From a virus, in IMG/VR virus record IMGVR_UViG_3300033146_000387, positions 1-35,608 of that record: 35,608 nt of DNA. One strand, written 5' to 3'. The translations under genes and the position numbers were made by a program. Below are positions 1-33,916 of this stretch, one piece after another; within the stretch, counting starts at the first letter, position 1; each line of letters opens with the position of its first letter. A model generated the notes under the pieces. It searched no databases. It was not told the origin of the DNA and saw only the letters and a program-made list of their open reading frames with translations.

Positions 1-2658
1 ATTTGCTGAAAACGGAATATTTACCGTAGCCGTATTTACATCAGTTGTTGCTGTATAAGACACACTGTTAAATGTGAAATTACAACTAGATGACGATACA
101 TGACTTATAGATGTGATAGTCCCAGTCACTGGGGGAGTAATGAATGCGGGAAATAAATCAGTATTTTGAGGAGATAATAATGTTATACCTATAGTGTGCT
201 GCGAAATATTATCAACATACTGTTTATCAACAACAGCATAATCACTAGCAGAAGTACCTAAATGGGAGTTTAATACAACATCATCACTCCCCATACCTAG
301 AGTTATTGTTCCTCCATTGGCTTCAATATGTAAATTGTCTCCACCATTAACAGGTCCCATAGTTACACCATCAGTAGGAGATACTTTAAGATCTGAAGCG
401 ACCCAGCCACCATTATTGTCTGATACATTAACAGTAAGTAAATCACCCTGTGATGGTTGTGTACGGTTATCAACATATTTTTTAGTAGTCAAATCATCAT
501 TAATAGTAGGATCCCACACAAAACTATTAGCTCTTGGTACTTCTATTTGAGTATATCCATAGTGCATTTTGATATTACCAAAGTTTCCATTCTCATCAGA
601 TACCCCAATTTCACCATAATAAACATCAGTAGATAATGTATCATGTCTATTATAAAATATCATCATCCTGTCTGGATATGTGGAATCATTCGGAGTTAAT
701 ATAAAACCATAATTATTATAACCTTTGTGGATAATAGGATGAGTAGTGGCAATATTATCTTCTTGTAATGTGTCATCCCAAGAAGGTGTAGATACAGAAT
801 CATCAACATATTTTTTATCTATTAACGATGTATCATCTATCATAGGATTCCCTGTCATCAAGATTTGACTATCGGTTCTAAATTCTAACTCACCAAATGC
901 TGATGTACCATTAGACTGAATCTTGAGACTTGCATTAGAAGGTTTTATAATAGAATCACCACTCATGTGTAATTCAACAAGATCAGTAATATTATAACCA
1001 TTTGCACTATTGTCAACAGTCAAAACATCACCTAATCCTTGAGACGATACCTCAGTATGCATCCATTGCCCTTTTGTTACCGTACCATTACCAGATGTAA
1101 CAAAATCTATATTACTAGTAGCATATTCATAATATAGATCACAATCAGTAACAGTGATTGTGTGGACATTAGAACCTGTATCTGTTTCAACACCTTTATC
1201 CGTAGTTGATAAAAAATTAGTAACATATATCGATGGAAGGTTTGACGGTGATAACGCACTTATTCCTAAATTTGAACCTGCGTTATTAAGTAATGTGATA
1301 CCTCCAGCAAAAACAGTACTTTTATGAGAAGTTGGACTACATCCAACCGTCCACGTTGCACCCGTTCTATTACCAACACATAACGGATACCCATCAATGA
1401 TAATATCTCCGTCATCAGGTCTAACATAATTATCACCAGGGTATGCCTTAGAGAAATTCATAAATCCTCTATACCCACTATTAATCAAATCTGATATAAG
1501 TTCACCCTGCCTAGCATATATAATAGTATCGGCATCAAATGAATAATTTGTTAAATATTTTTTTGTCACCACATCATAATCATCAACAATATCAGTAATA
1601 TCACAATTTGGTAATCTCAAATTACCATTAGTATATAATTGCATCAAGATGTTAGGTGATACATTACCAGTAATTGATTGATTTAACTGCATACTAATAT
1701 CATTGACAGGGGACTCTCCTACATTGATATTATTAACTCCAGCAGCATCCTTACCAAAAGAATATAAACTTCCTACCTGTAATTCTGTCCCTGTTTTGAT
1801 AACATCACTAGAATATATTTTACCATCTGTTGTTATTGCTTCCAATGAGGTTCCTACCGCATCAGATACTGTAATAGTACCACTATATCCTGATGATGGT
1901 TGATAAGGATTTCCGTCTACAGGAGTTGGTCGTCCTTGAGCACCAACAGCTATCATATGATTATTAGGGTCATTTTCATCGTATGTGACTGTCCATTCTG
2001 TTCCTGTTTGAATGATCCAATAATCATGAGTATCATGTTTATATTTACTAGATGTTACTTTTATAAACTGCCCATTACAGTTACAATTACCTGTAGAATA
2101 TGATATCATATCGACACCATCTAAAATGACATTATCAGTAGACGATGCACCCACGTGTATATCTAACTTACCACTAGAAAATCCTCCGCCCAATATCATT
2201 TGATTAGGATCAGTAATAGGCGACAATATATCATTAGTATACGACCATAATTCTGGAGAAATTTGAGTTGATAAATAATCTTTAGTTACCAATGTAGTTG
2301 CACTTGCGGCAGATATTGCAGCAATACTAGCATTAGGAGCATTAATAGTTCCATCAGTAACAATTTGAAGTTCCCCATCTGAATAATTTAAATCTTGGGA
2401 TACTAACTTAAGATATGACGTATCATAATATATATATCCTGTTAATCCAGAATATGCTGGATCTGGATCCTGAATTTCTATATCTTTAAATGATGCCTCA
2501 CCTGTTTTTTTAGTGTATGTATTTATATCTCCCATATCAGATTTATAATTAATATCACCAGTAACAGTATTATATGCTAATTGTTTATTATCAAGATCAT
2601 TCATATCATCATGTTCAATATGTCTAATCTTTCTAAAACCTATTTGTTCGTTTGCCAT
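1..2658 (-). CDS. Tail fibre protein, partial (3' end outside window)
   Basis: The frame is open from the ATG at 2658 to the left edge, giving at least 886 residues with no stop; it starts MANEQIGFRKIRH and has a GGAG Shine-Dalgarno sequence in front of the ATG. The protein is modular. Short motifs of the type T/D-K-K-Y-V-D recur at about residues 125 (TKDYL), 365 (TKKYL), 610 (KKYVD), 726 (KKYVD) and 812 (KQYVD), separated by beta-rich, Gly/Ser/Asn/Asp-rich segments containing phrases such as GDLLTVNVSDNNGG. KKYVD-type linkers are common in trimeric tail fibres of T4-like phages, so a host-recognition or fibre-shaft role is inferred. All motifs are in one frame, so no frameshift is present. 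The gene sits last in the block, behind its own terminator/late-promoter pair. Which T4 fibre it corresponds to cannot be decided. Confidence 0.75.
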   Translation of the reverse strand, partial: MANEQIGFRKIRHIEHDDMNDLDNKQLAYNTVTGDINYKSDMGDINTYTKKTGEASFKDIEIQDPDPAYSGLTGYIYYDTSYLKLVSQDLNYSDGELQIVTDGTINAPNASIAAISAASATTLVTKDYLSTQISPELWSYTNDILSPITDPNQMILGGGFSSGKLDIHVGASSTDNVILDGVDMISYSTGNCNCNGQFIKVTSSKYKHDTHDYWIIQTGTEWTVTYDENDPNNHMIAVGAQGRPTPVDGNPYQPSSGYSGTITVSDAVGTSLEAITTDGKIYSSDVIKTGTELQVGSLYSFGKDAAGVNNINVGESPVNDISMQLNQSITGNVSPNILMQLYTNGNLRLPNCDITDIVDDYDVVTKKYLTNYSFDADTIIYARQGELISDLINSGYRGFMNFSKAYPGDNYVRPDDGDIIIDGYPLCVGNRTGATWTVGCSPTSHKSTVFAGGITLLNNAGSNLGISALSPSNLPSIYVTNFLSTTDKGVETDTGSNVHTITVTDCDLYYEYATSNIDFVTSGNGTVTKGQWMHTEVSSQGLGDVLTVDNSANGYNITDLVELHMSGDSIIKPSNASLKIQSNGTSAFGELEFRTDSQILMTGNPMIDDTSLIDKKYVDDSVSTPSWDDTLQEDNIATTHPIIHKGYNNYGFILTPNDSTYPDRMMIFYNRHDTLSTDVYYGEIGVSDENGNFGNIKMHYGYTQIEVPRANSFVWDPTINDDLTTKKYVDNRTQPSQGDLLTVNVSDNNGGWVASDLKVSPTDGVTMGPVNGGDNLHIEANGGTITLGMGSDDVVLNSHLGTSASDYAVVDKQYVDNISQHTIGITLLSPQNTDLFPAFITPPVTGTITSISHVSSSSCNFTFNSVSYTATTDVNTATVNIPFSAN

Positions 2659-2695
2659 TACACGACTCCATATTTATAAATATTTTTAACAATAG

Positions 2696-2703
2696 TATTT
2701 ATA
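2696..2703 (-). promoter_or_regulatory. T4-type late promoter for the tail-fibre gene
   Basis: The minus strand reads TATAAATACT, preceded by A, 37 bases upstream of the tail-fibre ATG and just after a strong hairpin. It matches the T4 late-promoter core TATAAATA, which is recognised in T4 by the gp55 sigma factor with the gp45 clamp. A second TATAAATA at 2671-2678 is too close to the start codon to leave a leader. Confidence 0.65.
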
Positions 2704-2711
2704 TAAAATGA

Positions 2712-2743
2712 AAGAACCGTTCAAAATTAATCGAACGGTTCTT
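2712..2743 (-). terminator. Intrinsic terminator after the spike gene
   Basis: An 11-bp perfect inverted repeat (AAGAACCGTTC / GAACGGTTCTT) with a 10-base loop lies directly behind the TAG stop of the spike gene. On the minus strand it is followed by a T-rich stretch (TTCATTTTA). It separates the spike gene from the tail-fibre promoter. Confidence 0.75.
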
Positions 2744-2747
2744 ATAC

Positions 2748-4571
2748 CTAACATCCTTGTGGATCATCTTCGCAAGGAGGATGGATACTATCTTGTATAA
2801 TTATGGAATATCCATCAATCATATCTATCAGTTCTGTATCTGTAGCGAAATCATCTTGTATGATACAAGGATCTGGATTACATTCATTAATATAATCAAC
2901 TCTAGGATACCCAAATATTCCAGTTTCATAATTAGTATATTCTGGGAAACCATAACCAGGATTAGGTGGACATTTTATATTATTAAATGGAGACAATTCT
3001 CCTTTATTTCTGAAAATATCAATAATATCTTTTCTATAAAAATCACTACCTATAGAGAATGGATATTCATATCCTTCATCAACAGAATCATAATGTAAAT
3101 TAAATTGATTATTATATACACACGAAGGATATACCTCGTACCCTTCTCTATAAAAATTATTATAATCCGCAGATGTACCATTCAATGTATCATTAATGAA
3201 ACTAATATACACATCATTATCATTTTCTATCTCTATCAAATTATTAGTCACAGTATCAACGATATTAAGATATTGAGTAATATGGTCTCTATTTTCCACA
3301 CCAATACCTATATTATGATGTTTATACCCCATTCCTATCATTTCACTTTGGATAGAACAATAATATGATTTAAGATCATCTATATCATATGACGTTGTGA
3401 ATGAACCTGAATCGTACACACCGCCATCTATTATTAATATATGAGAATCTGCATCGATATTTCTAGGTCCGATTTCATTTATAACATTTGGTGCTCCATT
3501 AGAAATAAATATATTTTGTTCTTCAAAATTATGAATATTATTATAATCGATAATTCCGCGTTCTATACTAGCATTAATTGCTATAGAATCATTGTTATTA
3601 GAAAATACACTAGTAGTAGTGAACGGATTGTATTCTATAATATTATTGATTATCGTATATTCTGAAGTACCACCTGTACCAGCGTATGGAATTACTATAC
3701 ATGTACTATTATTATCAGGCTCCATAATGTAAATAAAATTATTAGAAATTTTCATACCATTACCGTGTGATATATTTTGATCATATAACACACCCATAGA
3801 TGCGTCACCTAATAATCCTATAACATTTTTATGTGTGATTATATGATCACATAATTTTGTAGCATAAACACACGTAAAACTTCCTGATACAGACATATCA
3901 GTAATAATATTTTTTTCTATAGTTATGTAATTGGATACATTAACTATAGATATACCGATACCTCGATAATCAATAGAAGGATCCACAAAATCATAAATAA
4001 CGGTTTTTATCACATTATCTTCAATCACACACGATCTACTATTATCTATCCTAATACCATTACACGAATGTAAATTATCAGTAACGTGGGTATATATTGT
4101 AGAATTTTTGATATGAACATTGACAGTATCAACTACATCAATGATAGTTGCGTTATCAGGGCTATTGAATGCGGTATCTTTACCGAAAATGCAAGAATTA
4201 ACTATAACTGAGTTTGTGTTGATACGCAAGCACACACCATTTCTGACATCTGTATCGAATTCTAAATTATTAATGGTAGAACCATTACCTAATAATGTCA
4301 TCCCAGTACTATCGGGATTTGTGGAGATTATACCTCTATTACTATCACTCCAAGAAAATTCTGTTCCTGTGTAATAACTAGATATATGTACTGTGTGAAA
4401 TATTGTAATATCCTCAGCACTATCATCTACAGGACCGCCTACAATAATATAATCACCATTATTAATAGAGACGTTATCTAATAATTCTTTAAAATTTGTA
4501 GCACCACTAGAAAACTGTAAAAAGTCTTTAGTGGGATCTGGTGATAAAAACCCGTTTATATAATATTTCAT
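2748..4571 (-). CDS. Right-handed beta-helix tailspike-like protein
   Basis: The product is about 607 residues. An ATG at 4583 is also in frame, but the ATG at 4571 has GGGA at the right distance and makes an ATGA overlap with the upstream stop, so I chose it. After an N-terminal segment (about 1-75) come repeated rungs of the pectate-lyase/NosD type, about 80-330, each with hydrophobic-Asn patterns such as VIVNSCIFG, VHIKNSTIY, CVIEDNVIK, ITIEKNIIT, MKISNNFIY and YTIINNIIE. This is the hallmark of a parallel beta-helix, as in phage tailspikes that bind or cut surface glycans. Catalytic residues cannot be assigned. The C-terminus (about 330-607) is unrecognised and ends Cys-rich and acidic. 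Position after the wedge genes supports a peripheral baseplate or tail location. Confidence 0.65.
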   Translation of the reverse strand: MKYYINGFLSPDPTKDFLQFSSGATNFKELLDNVSINNGDYIIVGGPVDDSAEDITIFHTVHISSYYTGTEFSWSDSNRGIISTNPDSTGMTLLGNGSTINNLEFDTDVRNGVCLRINTNSVIVNSCIFGKDTAFNSPDNATIIDVVDTVNVHIKNSTIYTHVTDNLHSCNGIRIDNSRSCVIEDNVIKTVIYDFVDPSIDYRGIGISIVNVSNYITIEKNIITDMSVSGSFTCVYATKLCDHIITHKNVIGLLGDASMGVLYDQNISHGNGMKISNNFIYIMEPDNNSTCIVIPYAGTGGTSEYTIINNIIEYNPFTTTSVFSNNNDSIAINASIERGIIDYNNIHNFEEQNIFISNGAPNVINEIGPRNIDADSHILIIDGGVYDSGSFTTSYDIDDLKSYYCSIQSEMIGMGYKHHNIGIGVENRDHITQYLNIVDTVTNNLIEIENDNDVYISFINDTLNGTSADYNNFYREGYEVYPSCVYNNQFNLHYDSVDEGYEYPFSIGSDFYRKDIIDIFRNKGELSPFNNIKCPPNPGYGFPEYTNYETGIFGYPRVDYINECNPDPCIIQDDFATDTELIDMIDGYSIIIQDSIHPPCEDDPQGC

Positions 4572-7522
4572 ATTTGTTCCCATGTTGTCTTAAATCCATT
4601 ATTAGAATTTATAGTACACCCTATAATATTAGTTGTTTTTGTTGCGTCATCTATCCATCTAGTTCTTTCGAAAATTATTTTACCTAGATTATTCCAAGTC
4701 ACAAACATATTATACATATTTGTGACGAATAAATTACCAATACTATTAGATGTTCTATTATATATGACACCATCAGAGATAACACATCCTACAAGACTTA
4801 CATTTTTATTTTTAGTTCCATAAAAATTAATAACCCAAGGACCATATAATGTAGAATCCCACGCATCGATCTCATAAAAATTATCATCATTAATAATGAT
4901 GTTGCTTTCTGCCTCTCGATAGCCACGACAATGATAAATGTCCCTAAATTCTCCATCACCACCATCAGTAATTCTATCAACGAATTCAGAATATGTGAAT
5001 GGAAGGTCTTCAGTACCATTAGATACCATACCACTTATAGTTTCATTAATATAATCAGCTTCCATTAAAATCTCACCAAAGCCACATTCGTAGGTTCCTT
5101 CTACCTTAACAGTCATAGAATTGAACTCACCAAAATTAGAATTATATAATGATATCCAAGCGTTATCACGTTTAGTTTTTCCATATATACGCATAGTAAT
5201 ATATGGAGTACCATCATAAGCTACCAGAGGGTCAAATTCTACTTTAACCCATATTCTTCGTAATGAATCACTACACGTTAAATCTTTATTACCAACGACA
5301 CCATATTTACGTTTAACATATGTCAATACTGACGCATCATATATATTGATAGAATCTTGTATATAATCCCATTCTATATATGTTTCATTACCATCTATAT
5401 TTAAATACATTCTAGGAGTACATGATATGTTTTTTCTAACAAACGAAAATTCTGTATTAAATTTTCCATATTTGATACCTGACATGATAATAGATTTATT
5501 AATACCAATAGCAACAAATTTATCATCAGAATCATCATGCCACAATGTTACAGGATTATACTCATTAAAAAAATCAGCATTCCACAAACCATTAATATGA
5601 CCATCTTCGAAATCATCATAGAGACCATATGCCAGAGATATGTCCTTGTCGCTTTCATATTTAGCGTCAAAATCAACATAATACTCCGACCTATTAACTA
5701 CATCAGTTATACGAACAGAAACATTCTCACTAAAGGAAATGCCATCTATCTTCATACCACTAACATTGATATCTACATCACCCACAATATTGTATGTGTA
5801 TGGGATATTAATAACATCCCCATAATTCTGAATATTATCAATTGGAATATCCATATGATATGGAAATAATGGATCACCCCAAGTAACACCCATAGATACT
5901 ATAGATGGTGTATCCTCTACTAAATTACTTATACGTAAATATAACGATGTTCCTATTTCAAATTCGTGAGTTGGTGTAGTGTCACTATCACTCAAATATG
6001 TATCAACTTCTACATGTCCAGGAGTTGTTACTATAAATTGAGTATAATTATCAGCAGGATTATCATACCAACCATTGAATGACTTTATATAAGACGAAAC
6101 TTGACTTATTCCTCTGGAAGTAGCAGATACGGATACCGCACCACTAGTAGTATAATATTCATTGCTATCCACATCCCATACATATTCATTAAAAATATTA
6201 TTAGTATCATACGTAGCACTAGTTGTATTAAATATATGTACATTATCATTTAGATTTGCATATCTAGGATCTGAATCTATTCTGTATGAAGGTAATTCTG
6301 GAAAATACAATGGTCCTATTCCATCTCGTTTACCAAACACATCTGTTAGTGAATTTGGGGTATTATAATAAAATGGTTTATCATCAGCAGTACCACGAAC
6401 ACCACCAATAGCAGAAGTGCCTATCCAGTCAGGAGACGTATATTGTAAATCATCTAATGTCAAAGGTAACACCCCAGCACTTAGCAATGACACCACAGGA
6501 TAACTATATAAATTATCTGTCCAATCATCAGCATACTCAAATAAATTAACATAATATTGACCAGCAGGAGTATTCAATACTGTTATATAATCTGTAGAAA
6601 ATATATTTTTATGTATAAATACAGTTATTCCACCCTTACCAAAATAATCATTATAATTATCTATTAAATACATTTCTCCTATATTAAAAAACATATTATT
6701 GACCATGACATAATTAGTATTACCATTGTATATATCACCACTATGCATTTCTTTAATACCAAATATAGACCCATCTATGGATGATCCAGACAACGACGGA
6801 ACACCATAGTTCTTAGAATAAAATATATTATTATATAACTCGATATTAGACCCATATTCATATACACCGAATGCTATAGGCATTCCTGTTGATACCCCAG
6901 TACCATCACTAACAAATAAACAATTACTTAGTAATATTCTATTAAAATTAACATCCGATATAAAGTCATTAGATATACATCTAAATACTAATCCTCCAAT
7001 AGGCACACCTGATGAATTAGACGCATCAAAACAATCACCTGTTTCCAACTGCATATTAGAAATACGTAATCCTACTCTATGAGTATTAATATATAACACA
7101 CTATGTATTTGTGATCCTAAATTGGGAACAATATTTTCTAAAGGCAACGCCACGTCATTTAAATCTGTTTTCTGATGTATCTTTAATTTATACGGAGTAT
7201 TATCTACCCAGCTAACAACATCAACAGTAATATATTCATCGGTGACAGAATTAAAATACATAACACCAGTCTCAACACGGAATGACCCAAAATCCTTAGT
7301 ATATTCAATACTACCTTTTAGATAAAATGTTCGTGAACTTTCAGACGACATATTCAATCTATATCTGATATATAATGTGAATTGCTCGAAACTTAATGGA
7401 TTTGATGTTGATCCTGTAGCAAAAGGATTTCCTATTTCACAAATAGGAGCACCATCACTATCAACATTTGATAGTGCGTCTGGTCCACTTAAATCAACAT
7501 ATATATTATTATAATCAGTCAT
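4568..7522 (-). CDS. Large multidomain tail spike/adhesin (beta-helix plus lectin-like domain)
   Basis: The product is 984 residues, starting at an ATG preceded by AGGAT nine bases after the gp6-like stop. Visible regions: a beta-helix-like stretch about 150-320 (rungs such as VGLRISNMQLE, RILLSNCLFVS, IELYNNIFYS, YVMVNNMFFN), an Ig/PKD-like beta region about 490-630, and about 635-830 a segment that looks like a concanavalin/LamG-type jellyroll (begins YDDFEDGHINGLWN, later WISLYNSNFGEF). The last 140 residues return to beta-helix-like rungs. Domain calls are by eye. The stop overlaps the start of the next spike gene (ATGA), so the two are translationally coupled and probably assemble together. 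The role is inferred as a surface-binding spike. No T4 counterpart is recognised; gp7, gp8 and gp10 occupy this part of the T4 gene order. Confidence 0.55.
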   Translation of the reverse strand: MTDYNNIYVDLSGPDALSNVDSDGAPICEIGNPFATGSTSNPLSFEQFTLYIRYRLNMSSESSRTFYLKGSIEYTKDFGSFRVETGVMYFNSVTDEYITVDVVSWVDNTPYKLKIHQKTDLNDVALPLENIVPNLGSQIHSVLYINTHRVGLRISNMQLETGDCFDASNSSGVPIGGLVFRCISNDFISDVNFNRILLSNCLFVSDGTGVSTGMPIAFGVYEYGSNIELYNNIFYSKNYGVPSLSGSSIDGSIFGIKEMHSGDIYNGNTNYVMVNNMFFNIGEMYLIDNYNDYFGKGGITVFIHKNIFSTDYITVLNTPAGQYYVNLFEYADDWTDNLYSYPVVSLLSAGVLPLTLDDLQYTSPDWIGTSAIGGVRGTADDKPFYYNTPNSLTDVFGKRDGIGPLYFPELPSYRIDSDPRYANLNDNVHIFNTTSATYDTNNIFNEYVWDVDSNEYYTTSGAVSVSATSRGISQVSSYIKSFNGWYDNPADNYTQFIVTTPGHVEVDTYLSDSDTTPTHEFEIGTSLYLRISNLVEDTPSIVSMGVTWGDPLFPYHMDIPIDNIQNYGDVINIPYTYNIVGDVDINVSGMKIDGISFSENVSVRITDVVNRSEYYVDFDAKYESDKDISLAYGLYDDFEDGHINGLWNADFFNEYNPVTLWHDDSDDKFVAIGINKSIIMSGIKYGKFNTEFSFVRKNISCTPRMYLNIDGNETYIEWDYIQDSINIYDASVLTYVKRKYGVVGNKDLTCSDSLRRIWVKVEFDPLVAYDGTPYITMRIYGKTKRDNAWISLYNSNFGEFNSMTVKVEGTYECGFGEILMEADYINETISGMVSNGTEDLPFTYSEFVDRITDGGDGEFRDIYHCRGYREAESNIIINDDNFYEIDAWDSTLYGPWVINFYGTKNKNVSLVGCVISDGVIYNRTSNSIGNLFVTNMYNMFVTWNNLGKIIFERTRWIDDATKTTNIIGCTINSNNGFKTTWEQI

Positions 7523-19483: not shown

Positions 19484-21469
19484 TTATGCGTATTTTAATT
19501 TAACATCACTAAAACTAACTCCTGTACGAGTAATGACAGTGGTGAATTGGATAAATTCAATAGTTTTAGTAGGTTGAACATAAATATCAACATTTAATTG
19601 ATTAGCATCTATAACATCTGGTGTGTTATTACTTTCGTCACAAACAACATCGTAACTATATAATCCATCAGAAGCCAAAATACCTGCTAAGAAATTATCA
19701 ATTAAAGTAAATACTCTTAAACGAGTTTGCTGAGTGTTATTCTCAAATAAGAATTGATTTAGAGTTCGTTCTATATTAGTCTCAATATAAATAAGATTAC
19801 GTCTAACATTAATTCTATCTAAAGCAGAATGCTTTAATTGTGCTGTTTTTTGTCCATCCATAATGAAACCTGTTCCTCTGATATATTTAACAGAGTTTAT
19901 GTTTCTATCATACATTAAACCAATTTGATCTTGATTATATAATCTATTTTGATCAAGTATTGATAATACCCCTCGTGTAGTTCCCGCAGGAGCATACCAA
20001 GGTTCAGCAATATTATCAACTCTAGCCATCAATGACGCACCATATATTGAATTAGGAATATATACTTCTTTATCATTATACTTATCATAGATTTTGGCAT
20101 AACCAGAATATAACGCCACGTAAGATGGATTAGGATATCCATATTTCTCATCATTAATGATCACCATAGGATCGGTCTCACCCACAGTACCAACTTGACT
20201 AGCGACAATACAATCTTTACGATCATAACAAACTTTAGCAGCTTCTAATTTATGAACATCATTCTCATATGGATTGATTAATATATTCACTGGAAGTTCT
20301 TCTCTGTTTCCGAATAATTGCCAGAAATCAGCATCAGAAGCACTACCACCAGTAGTCATAGTAAAATCACCACCCGATAATGTAGCAAATGTTCCACTAG
20401 TCTCATATGCATCACGTCTCACATATACTCCACCTGTATCACGCCAAGTTGGTGTTGTAGCACTAACACCTGTGAAATCCCAACTAGCACTTAAACTGAG
20501 AGTTTTGTCTATATACGATCTAACATAAATATATCGCGACACACCATTAAGTACTTTTTCTATAAATAAATCATTACCATCGGAATCTTTCTGATGTTGT
20601 GTTGATCCATAAAAAATTTCTGATGGCGAAATTCTTAAAATACCATGTTGCTTATCTTGAGCGTTAGCGTAAAGCTCATCCCACTCTTTATCATCTGGTT
20701 TAACATATACAGAAACTTTAATAACATCACTAGCGATAGGGAAGTATTTTTTTACTTTAGTGTCTCCACCGCCATATTGCCCACCACTAGTCACCCATAC
20801 TTCAGGAACTTTAAGTCCTGCTGATGTAAGATTATAATCTGGTGTAAATACCTGATCGTTAGTAGGTATAAACGCTGATGTAGCAAAACTTGATGTTGGA
20901 TATTCATCATAGCTATATAACCAATCAGAATATGGATTTAACGTTTCAACTGTAACAGCAATATTATCATTATCTTTACCTGGTCCTATAGCACCAAAAA
21001 GTAATGGACGAGATGATGTTTTATTTTCCCATACAGAAATTCTATCTCTTGTATCAAAAACTTCTAAGTCCGATACTTTAGTGGGTGTTTGTCCACTAGC
21101 AGGAATAACTGATTTACCTTCAGTATTAATTTCCACGTATCCATATTTATCGTTACCTGTATCATCATCATCATATGCTCTAAACACAAACAATGATTGA
21201 GATTCACTTAAAAATTGAATAGCACCGTATGATCCATAACCCAATTCTGGAGTTAATCTGCCTACTGGGGAATTATCAGTTCCACTAACAAAGTAAGGTT
21301 CACCGAATGTATCTATATATTCTTTATCGTTTTGTATCAGAACAGGTCTTGAAACTGGACCTTTTTTTGCTCTAACAACAGTACCACCATTAGAAATACC
21401 TTGAGCGATTAAAATTTCACTTAAATCTATTTCCTTGCGGTATACTCCAGGAGCTGAGTATCCTGCCAT
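19484..21469 (-). CDS. gp18: Tail sheath protein gp18
   Basis: The product is 661 residues, almost exactly the T4 gp18 length (659). It starts MAGYSAPGVYRKEIDLSEI, the standard sheath opening (PGVY-x-x-E-x-D). The C-terminal domain holds conserved sheath phrases: EPWYAPAGTTRGVLSILDQNRLYNQDQIGLMYDRNINSV (key residues W-Y-A-P-A-G, N-R-L-Y, D-x-L/I-y), then the RINVRRNLIYIETNIERTLNQFLFENN helix, and a final SFSDVKL strand. The central part (about 160-400) is divergent, as expected for the protruding domain. It forms the contractile outer tail cylinder. GGAGGAAA precedes the ATG, and a late promoter lies 44 bases upstream. Confidence 0.93.
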   Translation of the reverse strand: MAGYSAPGVYRKEIDLSEILIAQGISNGGTVVRAKKGPVSRPVLIQNDKEYIDTFGEPYFVSGTDNSPVGRLTPELGYGSYGAIQFLSESQSLFVFRAYDDDDTGNDKYGYVEINTEGKSVIPASGQTPTKVSDLEVFDTRDRISVWENKTSSRPLLFGAIGPGKDNDNIAVTVETLNPYSDWLYSYDEYPTSSFATSAFIPTNDQVFTPDYNLTSAGLKVPEVWVTSGGQYGGGDTKVKKYFPIASDVIKVSVYVKPDDKEWDELYANAQDKQHGILRISPSEIFYGSTQHQKDSDGNDLFIEKVLNGVSRYIYVRSYIDKTLSLSASWDFTGVSATTPTWRDTGGVYVRRDAYETSGTFATLSGGDFTMTTGGSASDADFWQLFGNREELPVNILINPYENDVHKLEAAKVCYDRKDCIVASQVGTVGETDPMVIINDEKYGYPNPSYVALYSGYAKIYDKYNDKEVYIPNSIYGASLMARVDNIAEPWYAPAGTTRGVLSILDQNRLYNQDQIGLMYDRNINSVKYIRGTGFIMDGQKTAQLKHSALDRINVRRNLIYIETNIERTLNQFLFENNTQQTRLRVFTLIDNFLAGILASDGLYSYDVVCDESNNTPDVIDANQLNVDIYVQPTKTIEFIQFTTVITRTGVSFSDVKLKYA

Positions 21470-21531: not shown

Positions 21532-23130
21532 TTAATCAGGTAGATACATTATAGGACCACTATTAGTTAAATCATATTGCTTATCTAAAGTACGAACCTC
21601 TAGATTAGCACTATCGAAATAATCAGTGGTTATGAAGTATAATGCCCATAATAAAGAAGTAACACAATCATCGTGAGTTTTTTGTGTTTCACCCTTCCAT
21701 ACATTAGGTCGTATTTCCACATAACGTGATAATTCAGAAATAGTATCGAAATCTCTAATATTTAATTTTTTTTCATTAGCATATCTTCTTAATAACAGAT
21801 GTGCCTCTAATTTACTTTTTCGTGTTGAACGTACTCCTAATCCATTAGGATCTAAATTTATAATATTATCAAATTCATATTCATACCACATCGTACTTAA
21901 TAACGATTCACCGATATCATTATTCTCTACCATTAATGGTGCGTCATAATATTGTGAAATACCTATACACACCTGGGCAAAATCATGAGTATCTATAGTA
22001 TTACATCTATATACAGCAACTTGGTCTATTTTTTCCTCAGAATATATTCTAAGAACTTGAACTACACTGTAATCATTACCTGTACCTTTTGCGGTATCAA
22101 CTCCTAAAATATACATAGCACCAGAAACAGGACGTTCGTATATTCCAAACACACCATTCCATTTATATTCTATTGGTTTTTCTAAATTTAGTCGTTTTAA
22201 TATATCACCATCAATCAATGTAGTAGAACTACCAAGAAACTTATTACCGTATTCCTGTTCAAATCTTCTGATATCATTATTTAATCGTCTAAGTTCTCTA
22301 CGTTTCCATTCATCATCTCTATCAGGGTGTTCCCACCAGTTAACTTCAATAGGATAATATGCGTTGTCATTTCTAACAGCACCAGACCAGAATTCGTAAA
22401 AGTGATTTAATCCTAATGGTGTAGATACAATAATAACCTTACCACCTGTAGATACTGTAGGTAAACTCGCAGTAATAAACTCTTCAGCCACATGGGGTTT
22501 TACTTTAGCAAACTCATCAAGATATAACATCGATACAGTTTCACCAGAAATTGAGTCTGATGATGTAGTGGCTGCTATAAGTTTCATACCGTTTTCTAAT
22601 TCTAATGTTTTCTCATTCCACGATACAATACCCTGCTGTAGCCATAATGGTAATTTTTTATAGGCTGTTTTTATACGTCTAAGAACTTCTTTAGCAGCAC
22701 TTTCTTTGTTAGCTAATATAGCAACAACTAAATCTTTATTAAATAACATATAATGTAATAAAAATATTGATGACATTGTGCTATTGTGTGATAACATACC
22801 ATCACTGAAAAATGTGTGACCATCCGAATCTACACTAACATCATACATATGCTCTGGTTCTATATCTAAGTGTGTGACACTTATTATCGCTTCAGTACCT
22901 GTGTTGGTCTTAACTAAATCACCAACACACAAATCTTCTACAAATACCTCTTCACTATTATCACGTATTAAAATATGTTTATCTGCACACTTCAAACTAT
23001 GATTTTCTGACTTAACTTCCCATACATCATATTTAATCGTTTTATGTACGTGGGTGAGAGGTTCCCACCCAGTATCTGATAAAATTTCATAATTATGAAG
23101 TTCTCTAGTCTCTATTACCTCAGCCATCAT
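21532..23130 (-). CDS. gp17: Large terminase gp17, C-terminal gene: C-intein plus ATPase/nuclease extein
   Basis: The product is 532 residues from the ATG at 23130 (AAGGGG upstream; GTG at 23133 is also in frame). Residues 1-116 are a C-intein: block-B-like LKCADKH (H52; the usual Thr of TxxH is Ala), a GDLV strand near 70, block F YDVSVDSDGHTFFSDG, and block G ending MLSHN. From S117 it is T4 gp17-like: STMSSIFLLHYMLFNKD completes the Walker A, MLYLDE (205-206) is Walker B, IVSTPLGLNHFYEF is the motif after it, and the nuclease acids are D345 (LGVDTAKG), E402 (MVENND) and D487/D488 (THDD). The extein cannot work alone, since the first half of its P-loop lies in a separate gene. Its start overlaps the endonuclease stop by 11 bases. 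Confidence 0.93.
   Translation of the reverse strand: MMAEVIETRELHNYEILSDTGWEPLTHVHKTIKYDVWEVKSENHSLKCADKHILIRDNSEEVFVEDLCVGDLVKTNTGTEAIISVTHLDIEPEHMYDVSVDSDGHTFFSDGMLSHNSTMSSIFLLHYMLFNKDLVVAILANKESAAKEVLRRIKTAYKKLPLWLQQGIVSWNEKTLELENGMKLIAATTSSDSISGETVSMLYLDEFAKVKPHVAEEFITASLPTVSTGGKVIIVSTPLGLNHFYEFWSGAVRNDNAYYPIEVNWWEHPDRDDEWKRRELRRLNNDIRRFEQEYGNKFLGSSTTLIDGDILKRLNLEKPIEYKWNGVFGIYERPVSGAMYILGVDTAKGTGNDYSVVQVLRIYSEEKIDQVAVYRCNTIDTHDFAQVCIGISQYYDAPLMVENNDIGESLLSTMWYEYEFDNIINLDPNGLGVRSTRKSKLEAHLLLRRYANEKKLNIRDFDTISELSRYVEIRPNVWKGETQKTHDDCVTSLLWALYFITTDYFDSANLEVRTLDKQYDLTNSGPIMYLPD
23120..23127. repeat. Direct repeat, copy 1 (start of C-intein gene)
   Basis: TCAGCCAT, an exact copy of 24145-24152. 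Read on the minus strand both copies code Met-Ala-Glu in the intein frame. They bracket the endonuclease gene and may mark its insertion point. Confidence 0.5.
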
Positions 23131-24091
23131 CACCCCTTATAAACTCTAAACATTGACATATAACTTTTTCCTTATCGTCATTATAATCTTTTTCAGAAAC
23201 GTGATATATAGATATGTATGGACACGCATCAATAATCTCTTTATCTCTATCTTCGTCTCTAGTTCTATTACCTCTACCAACTTCACCATGCCAATATGTA
23301 CCATCAAATTCGATGCATTTATGGTTATCTAGTATATAAAAATCCAACATTCTGTGCGTGACATTAGTATTAACTCTATATTCTTTATTAACACCCTCAT
23401 CAACCCTAACACCGTCCACCAATGTAGCAAAATATATATCATCATAATCATCTTTAATTATGTCATATATACTCCAAAATAAGTCCTGACTAATTTTGGA
23501 GTAATTCATTTTAGGAAAAGATTTCAGCCACTTCTCTTGACGTTTGTTAAATACAGTAATACCTTCATCCTCACCATACTTATCTATACATATTTTCTTA
23601 CTAAAGGTAGACTGTCTTTTTGATAATTGCACTTCAGCTTCTTGTTTGGTGTATCCTTTATGTATCCAATATTCTATTTTAGAATTCAAATATGACGGAT
23701 TATTTTCTATTGCCTTTTTAATACCTTCAGAAGATTTTTCTAGCCTATTAGCATGTTCGTTATGCCATAGAACATTACAATCACTATTATAACAAAATTT
23801 CATATATCCCTCACTAAAACGATCTTTAACGAGTTTCAATCTCTTGCCACAGTGTTTACAATGTCCCTCATCATCATTTTTGATATATGTATCATAATAT
23901 TCTAACCTATCATCAACGTCCATATGATGTGTTGATGTTAAATGACGTTGCAACCCACCTAAAGTAGCGTAACGTTTACCACATAATTCACATACAACAT
24001 TTAAATCATCAGAATGTTGTTCTCTAGTATGTCTTCGTAACGACGACATATTTTTATACTCTTTACCACAAACATCGCAAATATACGACAT
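23120..24091 (-). CDS. Homing endonuclease-like protein, C2H2 fingers plus Vsr-like nuclease
   Basis: The product is 323 residues. TTG at 24097 is in frame, but ATG at 24091 has GGGTGG at the right distance. Residues 5-26 (CDVC...H-x4-H) and 34-55 (CELC...H-x4-H) are classic C2H2 fingers, and C78/C81/C100/C105 form a possible third zinc site. About 138-200 carries a pattern found in phage-borne endonucleases: WIHKGYTKQEAEVQLSKRQ, TFSKKICIDKYGEDEG. About 245-300 is a Vsr/EDxHD-type catalytic core: D250 (RMLDFYI), E261 and D263 (CIEFDG), H268 (YWHGE), followed by RDEDRDKEI. This family is known from fractured phage genes with split inteins and from free-standing phage homing enzymes. It sits exactly between the two terminase gene halves, with its own late promoter. 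The likely target is an uninterrupted intein or terminase allele (inferred). Confidence 0.85.
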   Translation of the reverse strand: MSYICDVCGKEYKNMSSLRRHTREQHSDDLNVVCELCGKRYATLGGLQRHLTSTHHMDVDDRLEYYDTYIKNDDEGHCKHCGKRLKLVKDRFSEGYMKFCYNSDCNVLWHNEHANRLEKSSEGIKKAIENNPSYLNSKIEYWIHKGYTKQEAEVQLSKRQSTFSKKICIDKYGEDEGITVFNKRQEKWLKSFPKMNYSKISQDLFWSIYDIIKDDYDDIYFATLVDGVRVDEGVNKEYRVNTNVTHRMLDFYILDNHKCIEFDGTYWHGEVGRGNRTRDEDRDKEIIDACPYISIYHVSEKDYNDDKEKVICQCLEFIRGDDG

Positions 24092-24112
24092 AATCAACCA
24101 CCCGTTTTTAAT

Positions 24113-24120
24113 TATTTATA
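24113..24120 (-). promoter_or_regulatory. T4-type late promoter between the terminase halves
   Basis: The minus strand reads A-TATAAATAAT, 21 bases upstream of the endonuclease ATG and 11 bases after the stop of the terminase N-gene. It would drive the endonuclease and the coupled terminase C-gene. Confidence 0.65.
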
Positions 24121-24131
24121 TTAACATAAAA

Positions 24132-24494
24132 TCAATTTTCTTCTTCAGCCATACCAAACAACTCAGAACCCGAAACTTGCATTATTTCACCGCTTAAAAC
24201 GTCTCTAACGGTCAATTTAACGTCCTTAAAAAAACATTTACCCATTTGTCGCGGCATTAACACAATAGCATTTTCTCTCTCATCATATTCTTCTGAACTG
24301 AATATTTTAAGAGCTTTTTTTTGATAATCGAATAACTTAACTAAGTGCATACCTTTTTTATTACTTTTAATATACACATAGTGTTCAGCAAAATATATAG
24401 GATCAAACGCACATCTCATAAACTCTTGCTGTTGTTCTTTCGTAACCTCGTACTGTTCTTTAACGCCTCTTAGGTTTTCGTGTCCTAAAAACAT
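24132..24494 (-). CDS. gp17: Large terminase gp17, N-terminal gene: N-extein plus N-intein
   Basis: The product is 120 residues. Residues 1-86 are the gp17 N-terminal extein: adenine-binding region with FDYQKKALKIF (Q-motif like) and VLMPRQMGK, which matches T4 SRQLGKT up to the Lys. Residue 87 is Cys, the splice nucleophile, starting a 34-residue N-intein (CFFKDVKLTVRDVLSGEIMQ..., block A), ending MAEEEN and TGA. The split point is early, between blocks A and B, unlike the usual split near block F. This resembles the atypically split AceL-TerL intein, whose N-part is about 25 residues. AAGGAAG precedes the ATG. It follows gp16 by 34 bases, as in T4. It is not a truncated pseudogene: all splice signals are present. 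Confidence 0.92.
   Translation of the reverse strand: MFLGHENLRGVKEQYEVTKEQQQEFMRCAFDPIYFAEHYVYIKSNKKGMHLVKLFDYQKKALKIFSSEEYDERENAIVLMPRQMGKCFFKDVKLTVRDVLSGEIMQVSGSELFGMAEEEN
24145..24152. repeat. Direct repeat, copy 2 (end of N-intein gene)
   Basis: TCAGCCAT, identical to 23120-23127. In the N-intein it codes the Met-Ala-Glu that precedes the final residues EEN. Confidence 0.5.
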
Positions 24495-24528: not shown

Positions 24529-25143
24529 TTATAAACTTAAATCTTCAGTAATTTCAAAATCAGCATCTAATGTTTCTATTTCACTATTATTTTTAGCATC
24601 CATAAACATATTTAGCATATCAGTTGAATTCATTACCATCTTATGTTCTTCTTTAACTTCATCAAGATTTTGTTTTTTATTCTCTATAATGAATTTAGCA
24701 ACCGCCTCATTTAATTGACGCAGCTCTTTATATTGAGATGTAATAGCGTTTAGTAATGAAGCATACACCTCATACATTCTAGGAGCAGAACCAATTTTAA
24801 TATCTTTTTCTAGTGTATTGAGAACACGTTTACTAGATAGGATTAATGATTTTATTTCGTGTGTTAAAAAATCAACATCACGTATTTTAGCAACCATTAA
24901 TTGATTTTGTAGATCATCTTTTTTGAGATCTATTTCATGGATTTCAGATTCAATAAGTTCAAAAGCGTCAGTTGATTGTTGTTTTATATCTGAAATTTTA
25001 GAAGCACTTTTAAATGAGTTATTAAACTCTTCATCTAATTTTTTTTCTGTTAATTCTTCTTCATAATCTGTGTCTAACGCATCACTAAGATTATGGAATG
25101 TTTTCTTCATACTTTGTCTTTCAACGTGCGGATTAGAATCCAT
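24529..25143 (-). CDS. gp16: Small terminase subunit gp16
   Basis: The product is 204 residues (T4 gp16 has 164). The central-C part, IGSAPRMYEVYASLLNAITSQYKELRQLNEAVAKFI (about 125-160), matches the conserved T4 gp16 phrase with [23 protein letters not shown]: key residues A/S-P-R, E-V, L and the helix that follows. About 65-120 is a long, charged coiled-coil-like stretch. The N-terminus is acidic and variable. In T4, gp16 oligomers find the DNA and stimulate the gp17 ATPase. It stands directly upstream of gp17, the canonical order. AAGGTGG lies in front of the ATG. Confidence 0.85.
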   Translation of the reverse strand: MDSNPHVERQSMKKTFHNLSDALDTDYEEELTEKKLDEEFNNSFKSASKISDIKQQSTDAFELIESEIHEIDLKKDDLQNQLMVAKIRDVDFLTHEIKSLILSSKRVLNTLEKDIKIGSAPRMYEVYASLLNAITSQYKELRQLNEAVAKFIIENKKQNLDEVKEEHKMVMNSTDMLNMFMDAKNNSEIETLDADFEITEDLSL

Positions 25144-31805: not shown

Positions 31806-33620
31806 TTATACTTCAGCGTCGAATGAACCTTCTTCACCGCCAGTTTCGGCACCGAACTCTTCACCGCCTCCAGCTTCGCCACCAAACTCTTCACCGCCTC
31901 CAGCTTCGCCACCGAAACCTTCTTCGCCTCCACCAAATTCTCCACCACCTCCAGCACCAAACTCGTCTCCGCCTTCTTCTTCACCACCGAAGCCAGCATC
32001 AAGTCCAGCCATCTTAGCAGCTTCTTTTTCTCTAGTGACTAATTTGTCATTCTCTTCATATTCCTCTTCACTCATAAGGAACCAATTTTTAAGAACAAAT
32101 TCCATTGAGAATGGAGCATTTTCATTTTCTTGTGGTTTGTATATATAAGTTTCAATAGCACCAAGAATACCAAATCTAGATTCAAGTAATTCAAGTTCTT
32201 TATACTGTCTCCATAAATTAGATTGAGTATATTTAATATGATATAATGACTCATCAATATATGTGTCATCAAACCCCTGAAGTCGTAATAGAGTTAAAAA
32301 TGAATCCATAAATAGTTTAGTGAATTTTTTCTGTAGTCTTTCAACAAATCGTGAGAATTTTATTTCTTCTCTAGCAATCTCACCACTTTTACCAGTTGTG
32401 TAAGATGACGATGCTTCATCACCATTACCACCCCATCTAGAACTAGGAAGTTTTAATGTCTGGTGTAATTTTTTCTCAAAGAAATACACATCAGCCATTT
32501 CTCCTAGATTTTGTCCACCAGCGAGAGTTTCAACTGTAGTTCCTTCACCATTTTCATTTCTAGCAAACCAAAAATCCTCGGTCATTGCTTGGAAATTTTG
32601 TGACGAATCCATAGCACCTGTTGATGAATCGTAATGAATTTTCTTACGATACCGTTGCACGATACCACGTATATATTGTTCTGCTTTACCTTTTGGCATA
32701 CGACCAACAGCAATATTCCAAATACGACGTTCAGGTGCTCTAACTATACGATACACAACAACAGCATCCTCTAAATACTTAAGTTGATTATATACACGAA
32801 TACTTGCCTCTAAAAATCCAGTAACATCTAAAGGATTACGTCCTGTTTTTTGATAAGGAACATAAACAATTTGATCTTTGTCGAATCTAACTTCATCAGG
32901 TAATCCTGCGTCATGTCCACCATCAGTATCACCACTTCCAGCAGCGTATTGTTGAGATTGTGACCCGTCATTAGTACTAACGACACCCACACCCATATTA
33001 GCACCACCATAAGTTAGTTGAGTATTTTGAACATAACCACTAACCTGCGAATTGATATATACAGGAGACATTGTTTGTGGGGGCAACATTTTAAAATCTA
33101 TGATTGTGTCGCCTTCATCATTAAGAATCAATTCTAAATATATTTCACTATCGATTAGCCATCTACGAAACATATCCCATGCGGTATCATTAACAACAAA
33201 TACTTCATTGATTAAATAATCCCAATAATCTCTAAGTTGCTCTTCTATATATTCTGGAAGTTCTTCTTTAATATTGAGAGTCATAATACGACCATCAGAA
33301 TCTTCACACATAGCTTCATCACAAATAATATCAATAGCATCATTAATATCTGGATAATAAGACATTTCTCTATATTTAAAAATTCGATCATATTTTTGTC
33401 TAAAAAATTGTTCGAATTGGATATTAATAGATGCCATACCATAATATCCATTACTATCATATTCTGAATATGGATATCTACCGAATTCTATTTCTTCTTG
33501 AGAAAAACCTTTACTATTCTCAAATGCTTCAGCAGTTTCGTGTGTATGTTCATCATTAAGTCTTCCAAATCTAAAAAATTTAGCAAATGGATTTTCTTTA
33601 CCGAAAATTGGAATATTCAC
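31806..33620 (-). CDS. gp20: Portal protein gp20
   Basis: The product is 604 residues (T4 gp20 has 524), beginning at GTG 33620 with AAGGAGA upstream; the GTGA overlaps the HNH stop. Characteristic gp20 phrases: YREMSYYPDINDAIDIICDEAM near 80, DMFRRWLIDSEIYLELIL about 160-178, VYRIVRAPERRIWNIAVGRMPKGKAEQYI about 300-330, TVETLAGGQNLGEMADVYFF, and LKLPSSRWGG. Twelve copies form the ring for DNA entry and head-tail joining. The last 60 or so residues are a Gly/Glu-rich tail (repeats of GGGEEFGGEA) absent from T4 gp20, encoded by G/C-rich tandem DNA repeats. Confidence 0.93.
   Translation of the reverse strand: MNIPIFGKENPFAKFFRFGRLNDEHTHETAEAFENSKGFSQEEIEFGRYPYSEYDSNGYYGMASINIQFEQFFRQKYDRIFKYREMSYYPDINDAIDIICDEAMCEDSDGRIMTLNIKEELPEYIEEQLRDYWDYLINEVFVVNDTAWDMFRRWLIDSEIYLELILNDEGDTIIDFKMLPPQTMSPVYINSQVSGYVQNTQLTYGGANMGVGVVSTNDGSQSQQYAAGSGDTDGGHDAGLPDEVRFDKDQIVYVPYQKTGRNPLDVTGFLEASIRVYNQLKYLEDAVVVYRIVRAPERRIWNIAVGRMPKGKAEQYIRGIVQRYRKKIHYDSSTGAMDSSQNFQAMTEDFWFARNENGEGTTVETLAGGQNLGEMADVYFFEKKLHQTLKLPSSRWGGNGDEASSSYTTGKSGEIAREEIKFSRFVERLQKKFTKLFMDSFLTLLRLQGFDDTYIDESLYHIKYTQSNLWRQYKELELLESRFGILGAIETYIYKPQENENAPFSMEFVLKNWFLMSEEEYEENDKLVTREKEAAKMAGLDAGFGGEEEGGDEFGAGGGGEFGGGEEGFGGEAGGGEEFGGEAGGGEEFGAETGGEEGSFDAEV
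31854..31913. repeat. 30-bp tandem repeat in the portal C-terminal tail
   Basis: Two 30-base units (31854-31883 and 31884-31913) differ only in their first base. They code a ten-residue Gly/Glu/Phe/Ala unit, and more degenerate copies extend to about 31990. Local base composition is far richer in G/C than the surroundings. Confidence 0.85.
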
Positions 33621-33916
33621 AATATCTCCTTCATAAAGTAGTAATCAATATTTCCACTACTATTTATATATTCTAACACTCTTCCATTTGTAGAACCTAA
33701 CCATCCATTAATGATTATAGATTCGTTAGTTTTTATGGAATGTATTCCGTGTTTTACACCTGGTACATATATTCGTGTGTGGCAATTAGGACACACATAT
33801 ATTTTATTATATTCTTTATCAGATCCGTTTAATGTTTTAGGAACTATATGATGACGATGAATTTGACTTCGATGTTCACACACATAATCGCATCCTGGAA
33901 ATTCGCATTTATACAT
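33617..33916 (-). CDS. Free-standing HNH endonuclease
   Basis: The product is 99 residues. Zinc-type cysteines C4, C9 and C13 lie near the start (MYKCEFPGCDYVCEHR). The HNH core is HRHHIVPK at about 20-27, N38 (EYNKIYVCPNCHTRIY), and the final His of the CPNCH segment near 46. Such small HNH proteins are common mobile nicking or cutting enzymes in phages. It starts by TAATG overlap with the preceding gene and its end supplies the Shine-Dalgarno sequence and a late promoter (33661-33668) for the portal gene. The remaining C-terminal half (about 55-99) is unrecognised. Whether it homes or serves in packaging, like terminase-linked HNH proteins of other phages, is open. Confidence 0.82.
   Translation of the reverse strand: MYKCEFPGCDYVCEHRSQIHRHHIVPKTLNGSDKEYNKIYVCPNCHTRIYVPGVKHGIHSIKTNESIIINGWLGSTNGRVLEYINSSGNIDYYFMKEIL
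33661..33668 (-). promoter_or_regulatory. T4-type late promoter inside the HNH gene, for the portal
   Basis: The minus strand reads A-TATAAATAGT within the last 50 bases of the HNH coding region, 40 bases upstream of the portal GTG. Spacing equals that of the intergenic copies. Confidence 0.65.

What the first reader, a model, noticed from the sequence alone, without database searches (positions are those of the whole stretch)
21532..24494. Fractured large terminase gene with an atypically split intein inside the Walker A loop
The two terminase halves are separate genes. The first ends its extein as PRQMGK, then Cys and a 34-residue N-intein; the second starts with a 116-residue C-intein ending MLSHN, then STMSSIFLLHY. 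Joined, the extein reads PRQMGK-STMS, aligning with T4 gp17 SRQLGKTT, so the Walker A Ser/Thr is also the +1 splice nucleophile. DNA packaging would depend on protein trans-splicing. The N-intein is very short, as in the AceL-TerL intein from an Antarctic lake metagenome and unlike most split inteins, which break near block F. A complete phage context with both halves and the intervening gene makes this a useful case.
Basis: partly seen in the sequence, partly recalled or inferred. Interest (0 to 1): 0.92.

Follow-up and report, generated by a model that had tools for sequence, protein, structure and literature searches.

The report
Phage packaging motor encoded in halves
In this phage fragment the gene for the DNA-packaging motor is broken in two inside its ATP-binding loop, and each half carries part of a self-excising intein that should join the two proteins; this is a new member of a known kind (split inteins in fractured genes), and the same arrangement turns up as the only recognisable motor gene in several already-cultured phages.

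Summary
N-half (24132-24494, -) is an 86-aa T4 gp17-like extein ending PRQMGK plus a 34-aa Cys1 N-intein; C-half (21532-23133, -) is a ~116-aa C-intein ending LSHN plus the rest of TerL, beginning with the Walker A Ser. Splicing would give GK|ST at the T4 gp17 K166|T167 junction. Between them lies a homing-endonuclease gene (two C2H2 fingers plus an EDxHD/Vsr-like nuclease). About 34 further distinct viral loci show the same split; the endonuclease gene is intact in 21, a remnant in 2 and missing in 11. An 83%-identical contiguous version shows the two intein pieces are one domain. Corrections: AceL-TerL is split the same way but is related to inteins at a different TerL site; the contig is a 35.6-kb fragment; TerL is not expected in virions. 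New here: three cultured phages (Delftia phiW-14, Vibrio VmeM-32, Salicola SCTP-2) have only split TerL; in VmeM-32 the halves lie about 77 kb apart on opposite strands and in SCTP-2 the gene is in three dispersed pieces. That makes mere gene decay or RNA cis-splicing unlikely. Splicing itself is inferred, not measured.

The parts
24237..24494 (-). TerL N-extein (86 aa), gp17-like, ends PRQMGK (Walker A Lys)
   Evidence: phmmer to T4 gp17 residues 87-166 of 3ezk E 2e-6; phrog_5989 terminase 1.6e-16
24135..24236 (-). N-intein, 34 aa, Cys1; stop codon 24132-24134
   Evidence: aligned with 33-43 aa N-inteins of relatives and with contiguous inteins
23120..24091 (-). Free-standing homing endonuclease gene between the halves: two C2H2 zinc fingers + EDxHD/Vsr-like nuclease domain (likely start ATG 24091; ORF opens at TTG 24097; end overlaps the C-half start)
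   Evidence: zf-C2H2 8.6e-10; phrog_3339 homing endonuclease 3.5e-5; nuclease-domain profile top PDB hit 3r3p 'Mobile intron protein' 6.7e-4, then two Vsr entries at E about 3; MTES_1575 REase in 10/10 members
22783..23130 (-). C-intein, 115-116 aa, ends LSHN
   Evidence: dN/dS 0.14 against L002
21535..22782 (-). TerL C-extein (416 aa): +1 Ser, rest of ATPase domain, nuclease domain; stop 21532-21534
   Evidence: AlphaFold model matches T4 gp17 3cpe 5e-34
24529..25143 (-). Probable small terminase (context)
   Evidence: phrog_445 terminase small subunit 3.7e-5
19484..21469 (-). Tail sheath gene (context, downstream of TerL)
   Evidence: phrog_23 1.3e-70

Best explanation
A fractured T4-type large terminase gene carrying a class-1, atypically split intein exactly inside the Walker A loop, with a free-standing homing-endonuclease gene at the break. 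The two polypeptides are translated separately. The 34-aa N-intein docks into the ~116-aa C-intein to complete one HINT domain; Cys1 makes the N-S acyl shift, the Walker A Ser (+1) takes the N-extein by transesterification, the terminal Asn cyclises with its neighbouring His, and an O-N shift leaves intact ...PRQMGK-STMSS... TerL. Until then neither half has a complete P-loop, so packaging should need splicing. The endonuclease most likely spread the element by cutting empty terL alleles at this conserved site. Shown here: anatomy, homology, conservation of catalytic residues, purifying selection on the C-intein, natural contiguous counterparts, persistence of the split after endonuclease loss. 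Inferred: splicing activity, endonuclease target, dependence of packaging on splicing.
For: Coding anatomy and junction; gp17 homology of both halves meeting at K166|T167. In the 9-sequence alignment Cys1, block-B His, block-F Asp and terminal LSHN are invariant. Joined N+C profile hits solved inteins VidaL 1.4e-11, gp41-1 5.6e-9, CatC 1e-4. Contiguous natural counterpart: L122 153-aa intein is 83% identical over 150 columns to the L007 split pair (33+117), with only a short linker at the break. Of 56 distinct C-inteins in viral contigs: 21 split with endonuclease >=250 aa, 11 split with gap <400 and no endonuclease, 2 with endonuclease remnants, 8 contiguous; Cys1 in 32 of 35 parsed N-halves, +1 Thr 29, Ser 26, Cys 1. 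Close relative L002 (82.5% nt) keeps the split with only 19 nt between the halves; dN/dS 0.14 intein, 0.03 extein. Cultured phages with split-only TerL: phiW-14, VmeM-32 (opposite strands, about 77 kb), SCTP-2 (three loci). No Rfam intron in the window.
Against: No splicing measured. The window's N-intein is the most divergent of the close set (KDVKLTV where others have DT..KIRNKKTGEI). The model of the C-half alone has low confidence in the C-intein (pLDDT <50 at 1-35 and 93-116), as expected without its partner but not proof of a HINT fold. The rest of the genome is missing, so an intact second terL cannot be excluded in this phage itself. dS in the dN/dS estimate is near saturation.
Confidence: 0.92

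Rival explanations
1. The two halves are never ligated: they associate and work as a two-chain TerL (non-covalent complementation through the bound intein pieces).
For: Split ATPases can sometimes complement (general knowledge); no splicing data here.
Against: Cys1, the block residues, terminal His-Asn and +1 Ser/Thr are kept in nearly all relatives, which complementation alone would not need; an unspliced intein would sit inside the P-loop between the Walker A Lys and Ser/Thr.
Confidence: 0.04
2. Gene decay: a dead terminase broken by endonuclease insertion, with an intact terL elsewhere in the genome.
For: The rest of this genome is not available.
Against: dN/dS 0.03 for the extein and 0.14 for the C-intein; about 34 other loci with the same split; phiW-14, VmeM-32 and SCTP-2 have no other recognisable intact TerL.
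Confidence: 0.03
3. The halves are joined at RNA level (group I/II intron carrying the endonuclease), as reported for the ICP1 terminase transcript (PMC10448857).
For: Homing endonucleases also live in introns; ICP1 terL transcripts are spliced (PMC10448857).
Against: No Rfam match in the window; the pieces beyond GK and before ST are conserved protein sequence ending in intein motifs; relatives keep the split with only 10-100 nt between halves, too short for such an intron; in VmeM-32 the halves are on opposite strands.
Confidence: 0.01

Closest known systems
Fractured genes with split inteins and EDxHD homing endonucleases (Dassa et al. 2009, known here only by citation and own knowledge)
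   Same: Essential gene broken at an intein, free-standing Vsr-like endonuclease gene between the halves, conserved catalytic motif as insertion site
   Different: Host gene TerL, Walker A site, atypical split near the N-terminus; relatives include endonuclease-less and contiguous states
AceL-TerL and GOS-TerL atypically split inteins (consensus Cat, PDB 6dsl)
   Same: Naturally split in TerL with short N-intein (25 and 37 aa in the literature, PMC11766414; 34 here); split after the first helix
   Different: By sequence the AceL/GOS consensus is closest to inteins at another TerL site, near the ATPase/nuclease linker; window family is closer to VidaL and gp41-1; +1 residue Ser here, Cys at that other site
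Contiguous TerL intein at the same site in Ackermannviridae (Kuttervirus, Miltonvirus, Kujavirus; annotated as intein in phages Maynard and Marshall)
   Same: Same insertion point GK|T, homologous intein (32-35% identity)
   Different: One gene, cis-splicing, no endonuclease gene within terL in the records read
VidaL intein (PDB 6vgv/6vgw)
   Same: Best solved-structure match of the family profile (1.4e-11); short N-intein
   Different: N-intein 16 aa in VidaL (PMC13014065) against 34 here; weak pairwise similarity (E 0.04)

Membership tests
Split intein, class 1 | Nucleophile Cys/Ser at position 1 after the N-extein | tested here: met
   Cys after PRQMGK; Cys in 32 of 35 parsed N-halves
Split intein, class 1 | Block B His, block F, C-terminal His-Asn and +1 Cys/Ser/Thr | tested here: met
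   CADKH, YDVSVDSD, LSHN|S; TIGR01443 above its cutoff
Split intein, class 1 | N- and C-pieces form one HINT domain | tested here: inconclusive
   Strong indirect support: 83%-identical contiguous intein and one alignment with VidaL; the complex itself could not be modelled and the C-half model is weak in the intein
Split intein, class 1 | Ligated product observed | not testable with these tools
   needs co-expression or proteomics
Atypically split intein (short N-intein) | N-intein of about 15-37 aa | tested here: met
   34 aa; range quoted in PMC13014065
Fractured gene with free-standing homing endonuclease | Endonuclease gene between the two halves | tested here: met
   23120-24091
Fractured gene with free-standing homing endonuclease | EDxHD / Vsr-like nuclease domain | tested here: met
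   Invariant E42, D55, E66, G69, H73 in nuclease alignment; 3r3p 6.7e-4, Vsr next but only at E about 3. Whole-protein fold search gave only zinc-finger matches
Fractured gene with free-standing homing endonuclease | Endonuclease cuts empty terL at the insertion site | not testable with these tools
   needs cleavage assay
AceL/GOS TerL intein allele | Same insertion site and closest sequence kinship | tested here: not met
   6dsl matches an intein of the other TerL site at 8e-8, not the window C-intein at E<=10; profile 1e-4 against 1.4e-11 for VidaL
T4-type large terminase | gp17 ATPase and nuclease domains | tested here: met
   PF03237 7.5e-19, PF17289 above cutoff

The most novel reading that the evidence does not exclude
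A wide set of T4-like and jumbo phages, cultured ones included, can package DNA only after covalently assembling their sole packaging motor from two or three separately encoded proteins, with breaks in catalytic motifs (Walker A, Walker B, ATPase/nuclease linker); once fractured, the gene stays split even after the endonuclease is lost.
Probability: 0.8. Interest if true: 0.68.

Novelty: new member of a known kind. Interest (0 to 1): 0.55.

Why it matters
It gives a full locus (both halves, endonuclease, neighbours) for a split intein whose +1 nucleophile is itself the ATP-binding Ser/Thr of an essential motor. The comparison finds matched contiguous, split-plus-endonuclease, and split-without-endonuclease versions of one intein, which makes the origin and apparent irreversibility of gene fracture testable. 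It also points to cultured phages (Delftia phiW-14, Vibrio VmeM-32, Salicola SCTP-2) in which dependence of packaging on protein trans-splicing can be tested in infection. The three-piece terminases suggest natural pairs of intein ligations acting on one protein, which would have to be mutually orthogonal to avoid mis-ligation.

Tried and rejected
Allele of AceL-TerL: rejected by the 6dsl comparison. RNA intron: no Rfam match. A second TerL in the window's genome: not testable, only the window is held. Literature on split terminase inteins in cultured phages: no paper found with the terms used; Dassa 2009, Bachmann 2015 and Stevens 2018 are not in the library, so prior description cannot be excluded. 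Single origin of the split: the intein tree is too weakly supported to decide. Whole-protein fold search of the endonuclease was swamped by zinc fingers and a single-sequence search of its nuclease domain found nothing; the domain profile resolved it. A complex of N- and C-intein could not be modelled under the folding rules. My first endonuclease motif pattern missed Cys-Ile-Glu variants and undercounted endonucleases; corrected.

Full report
WHAT IS THERE. The window is a 35,608-base linear IMG/VR record and nothing else of its genome is held. All genes of the module run on the minus strand in T4-like order: portal, protease, scaffold, major head protein, neck gene, sheath stabiliser, probable small terminase, N-half of TerL, endonuclease, C-half of TerL, sheath, tube, baseplate. 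The N-half (24132-24494) is 120 aa: an 86-aa extein ending PRQMGK, then CFFKDVKLTVRDVLSGEIMQVSGSELFGMAEEEN and a stop. The C-half (21532-23133; likely start ATG 23130 or 23127 behind an AAGGGG) begins with ~116 aa ending MLSHN and goes on as STMSSIFLLHY. The extein parts match T4 gp17 at E 3e-52 and about 1e-6, and meet exactly at gp17 K166|T167. So the Ser left at the junction is both the Walker A hydroxyl residue and the +1 splicing nucleophile.

THE INTEIN. TIGR01443 scores the C-intein above its cutoff. In an alignment of seven split pairs and two contiguous inteins, Cys1, the block-B Ala-Asp-x-His, the block-F Asp and the final LSHN are invariant. A profile of this alignment hits solved inteins: VidaL 1.4e-11, gp41-1 5.6e-9, DnaX 7e-6, CatC 1e-4. 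AlphaFold on the C-half recovers gp17 convincingly and reaches VidaL at 1e-4 and gp41-1 at about 9e-4, but the C-intein itself is of low confidence, as one would expect without its 34-residue partner.

SAME INTEIN, THREE STATES. Among 56 distinct C-inteins in viral contigs: 21 split with an endonuclease gene of >=250 aa; 11 split with under 400 nt between halves and no endonuclease; 2 with endonuclease remnants; 1 with a long gap and no motif; 8 contiguous; 13 unresolved because the N-half lies outside the locus or could not be parsed. N-inteins are mostly 30-43 aa. The contiguous intein of L122 is 83% identical over 150 columns to the split pair of L007, with only three extra linker residues at the break. 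This is the best evidence that N-intein and C-intein are one domain cut in its linker. The window's near relative L002 (82.5% nucleotide identity) keeps the split with only 19 nt between the stop of the N-half and the ATG of the C-half; the N-half is visible only in its last codons because the contig ends there. C-intein dN/dS is 0.14 and extein 0.03 (dS near saturation). The fracture therefore outlives the endonuclease, which argues that the halves function as a pair.

THE ENDONUCLEASE. The gene between the halves has two C2H2 fingers and a C-terminal nuclease with invariant E, D, EF-G and H residues. The nuclease profile hits 3r3p, deposited as 'Mobile intron protein' (I-Bth0305I from my own knowledge), at 6.7e-4, with Vsr next but only at E about 3; MTES_1575 REase matches all members. 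Caulobacter phage Cr30 carries a homologue directly upstream of an unbroken, intein-less terL, as expected if this nuclease family homes on terL.

AceL/GOS-TerL share the split position but, on the sequence evidence, not the insertion site. In relatives, TerL inteins occupy several sites in spliced-window numbering: 86|87 (Walker A, this one), about 173-176 (Walker B), 206|207 (S|TPxG) and about 265|266 (QEYG|NKFLG). A C-intein of the last site matches the AceL/GOS consensus 6dsl at 8e-8; the window's does not at E<=10. That AceL itself lies at this site I also recall from its EFE|CEFL flanks, but that is memory, not a test.

CULTURED PHAGES WITH ONLY SPLIT TERL. Delftia phage phiW-14: the annotated gp47 begins with the C-intein; an unannotated ORF (record about 43274-43744, minus) is the N-half ending TARQMGK plus a 43-aa N-intein; a terminator-like hairpin (seen by eye) lies between them; no other TerL is found. 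Vibrio phage VmeM-32: N-half VmeM32_00107 (79947-80624, minus) ends SRQLGK plus a 34-aa N-intein; C-half VmeM32_00001 (1102-3216, plus) starts with the C-intein and also holds a contiguous intein in Walker B. Salicola phage SCTP-2: three genes annotated 'terminase large subunit' (gp534, gp267, gp224) at 429, 256 and 216 kb form N, middle and C pieces, split at Walker A and Walker B, with a further contiguous intein in gp224. Complete genomes with pieces on opposite strands or at distant loci rule out simple read-through or cis-splicing there. In metagenomic loci such as L063 three consecutive genes form one TerL through split inteins at Walker A and at the ATPase/nuclease linker.

VERDICT. The feature is real and the mechanism is very probably protein trans-splicing. 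It belongs to a known kind: fractured genes with atypically split inteins. What the window adds is the Walker A site and a full locus; the wider comparison adds the paired states and the cultured models. I did not find these cultured cases described as split-intein terminases in the open literature searched, but key papers were not readable here. Activity remains to be shown.

Noticed in passing
L063:4413-7416; L069:1-5293; L014; L008; phage SCTP-2 (MF360958 gp534, gp267, gp224): Terminases in three separate genes, joined by two split inteins (Walker A plus the ATPase/nuclease linker or Walker B), sometimes with a further contiguous intein.
   Followed up: partly
L066:4299-4991; L080:6518-7333; VmeM-32 VmeM32_00108 (KU160494 80621-81091): Stand-alone truncated TerL-like ATPase-domain genes (no nuclease domain; Walker A intact in L066, altered in the other two) sit beside fractured terL in three unrelated phages; function unknown.
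   Followed up: partly
L101 (Vibrio phage Va1, MK387337) 2153-5570 minus: TerL split at the linker site with an EDxHD-like endonuclease fused in frame to the C-intein and the TerL C-terminal half.
   Followed up: partly
GQ357915 about 43274-43744 minus (L084): Unannotated N-terminal TerL half in Delftia phage phiW-14, with a terminator-like hairpin between the two halves.
   Followed up: yes
window 33617-33916 minus: Small HNH endonuclease (PF01844, 8.3e-7), a possible second homing endonuclease near the portal gene.
   Followed up: no
L016 (1059-3815) and L051 (754-3282): TerL ORFs with Ala after the Walker A Gly-Lys and an insertion ending HN|T, possibly Ala1-type inteins at the same site.
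   Followed up: no
L153: Contiguous Walker A-site intein of 405 aa with a ~250-aa insertion at the position where others are split, perhaps decayed endonuclease sequence read in frame.
   Followed up: no
window 1-7522 minus: Three large ORFs (886, 611, 984 aa) next to the baseplate genes with no PHROG or Pfam match.
   Followed up: no
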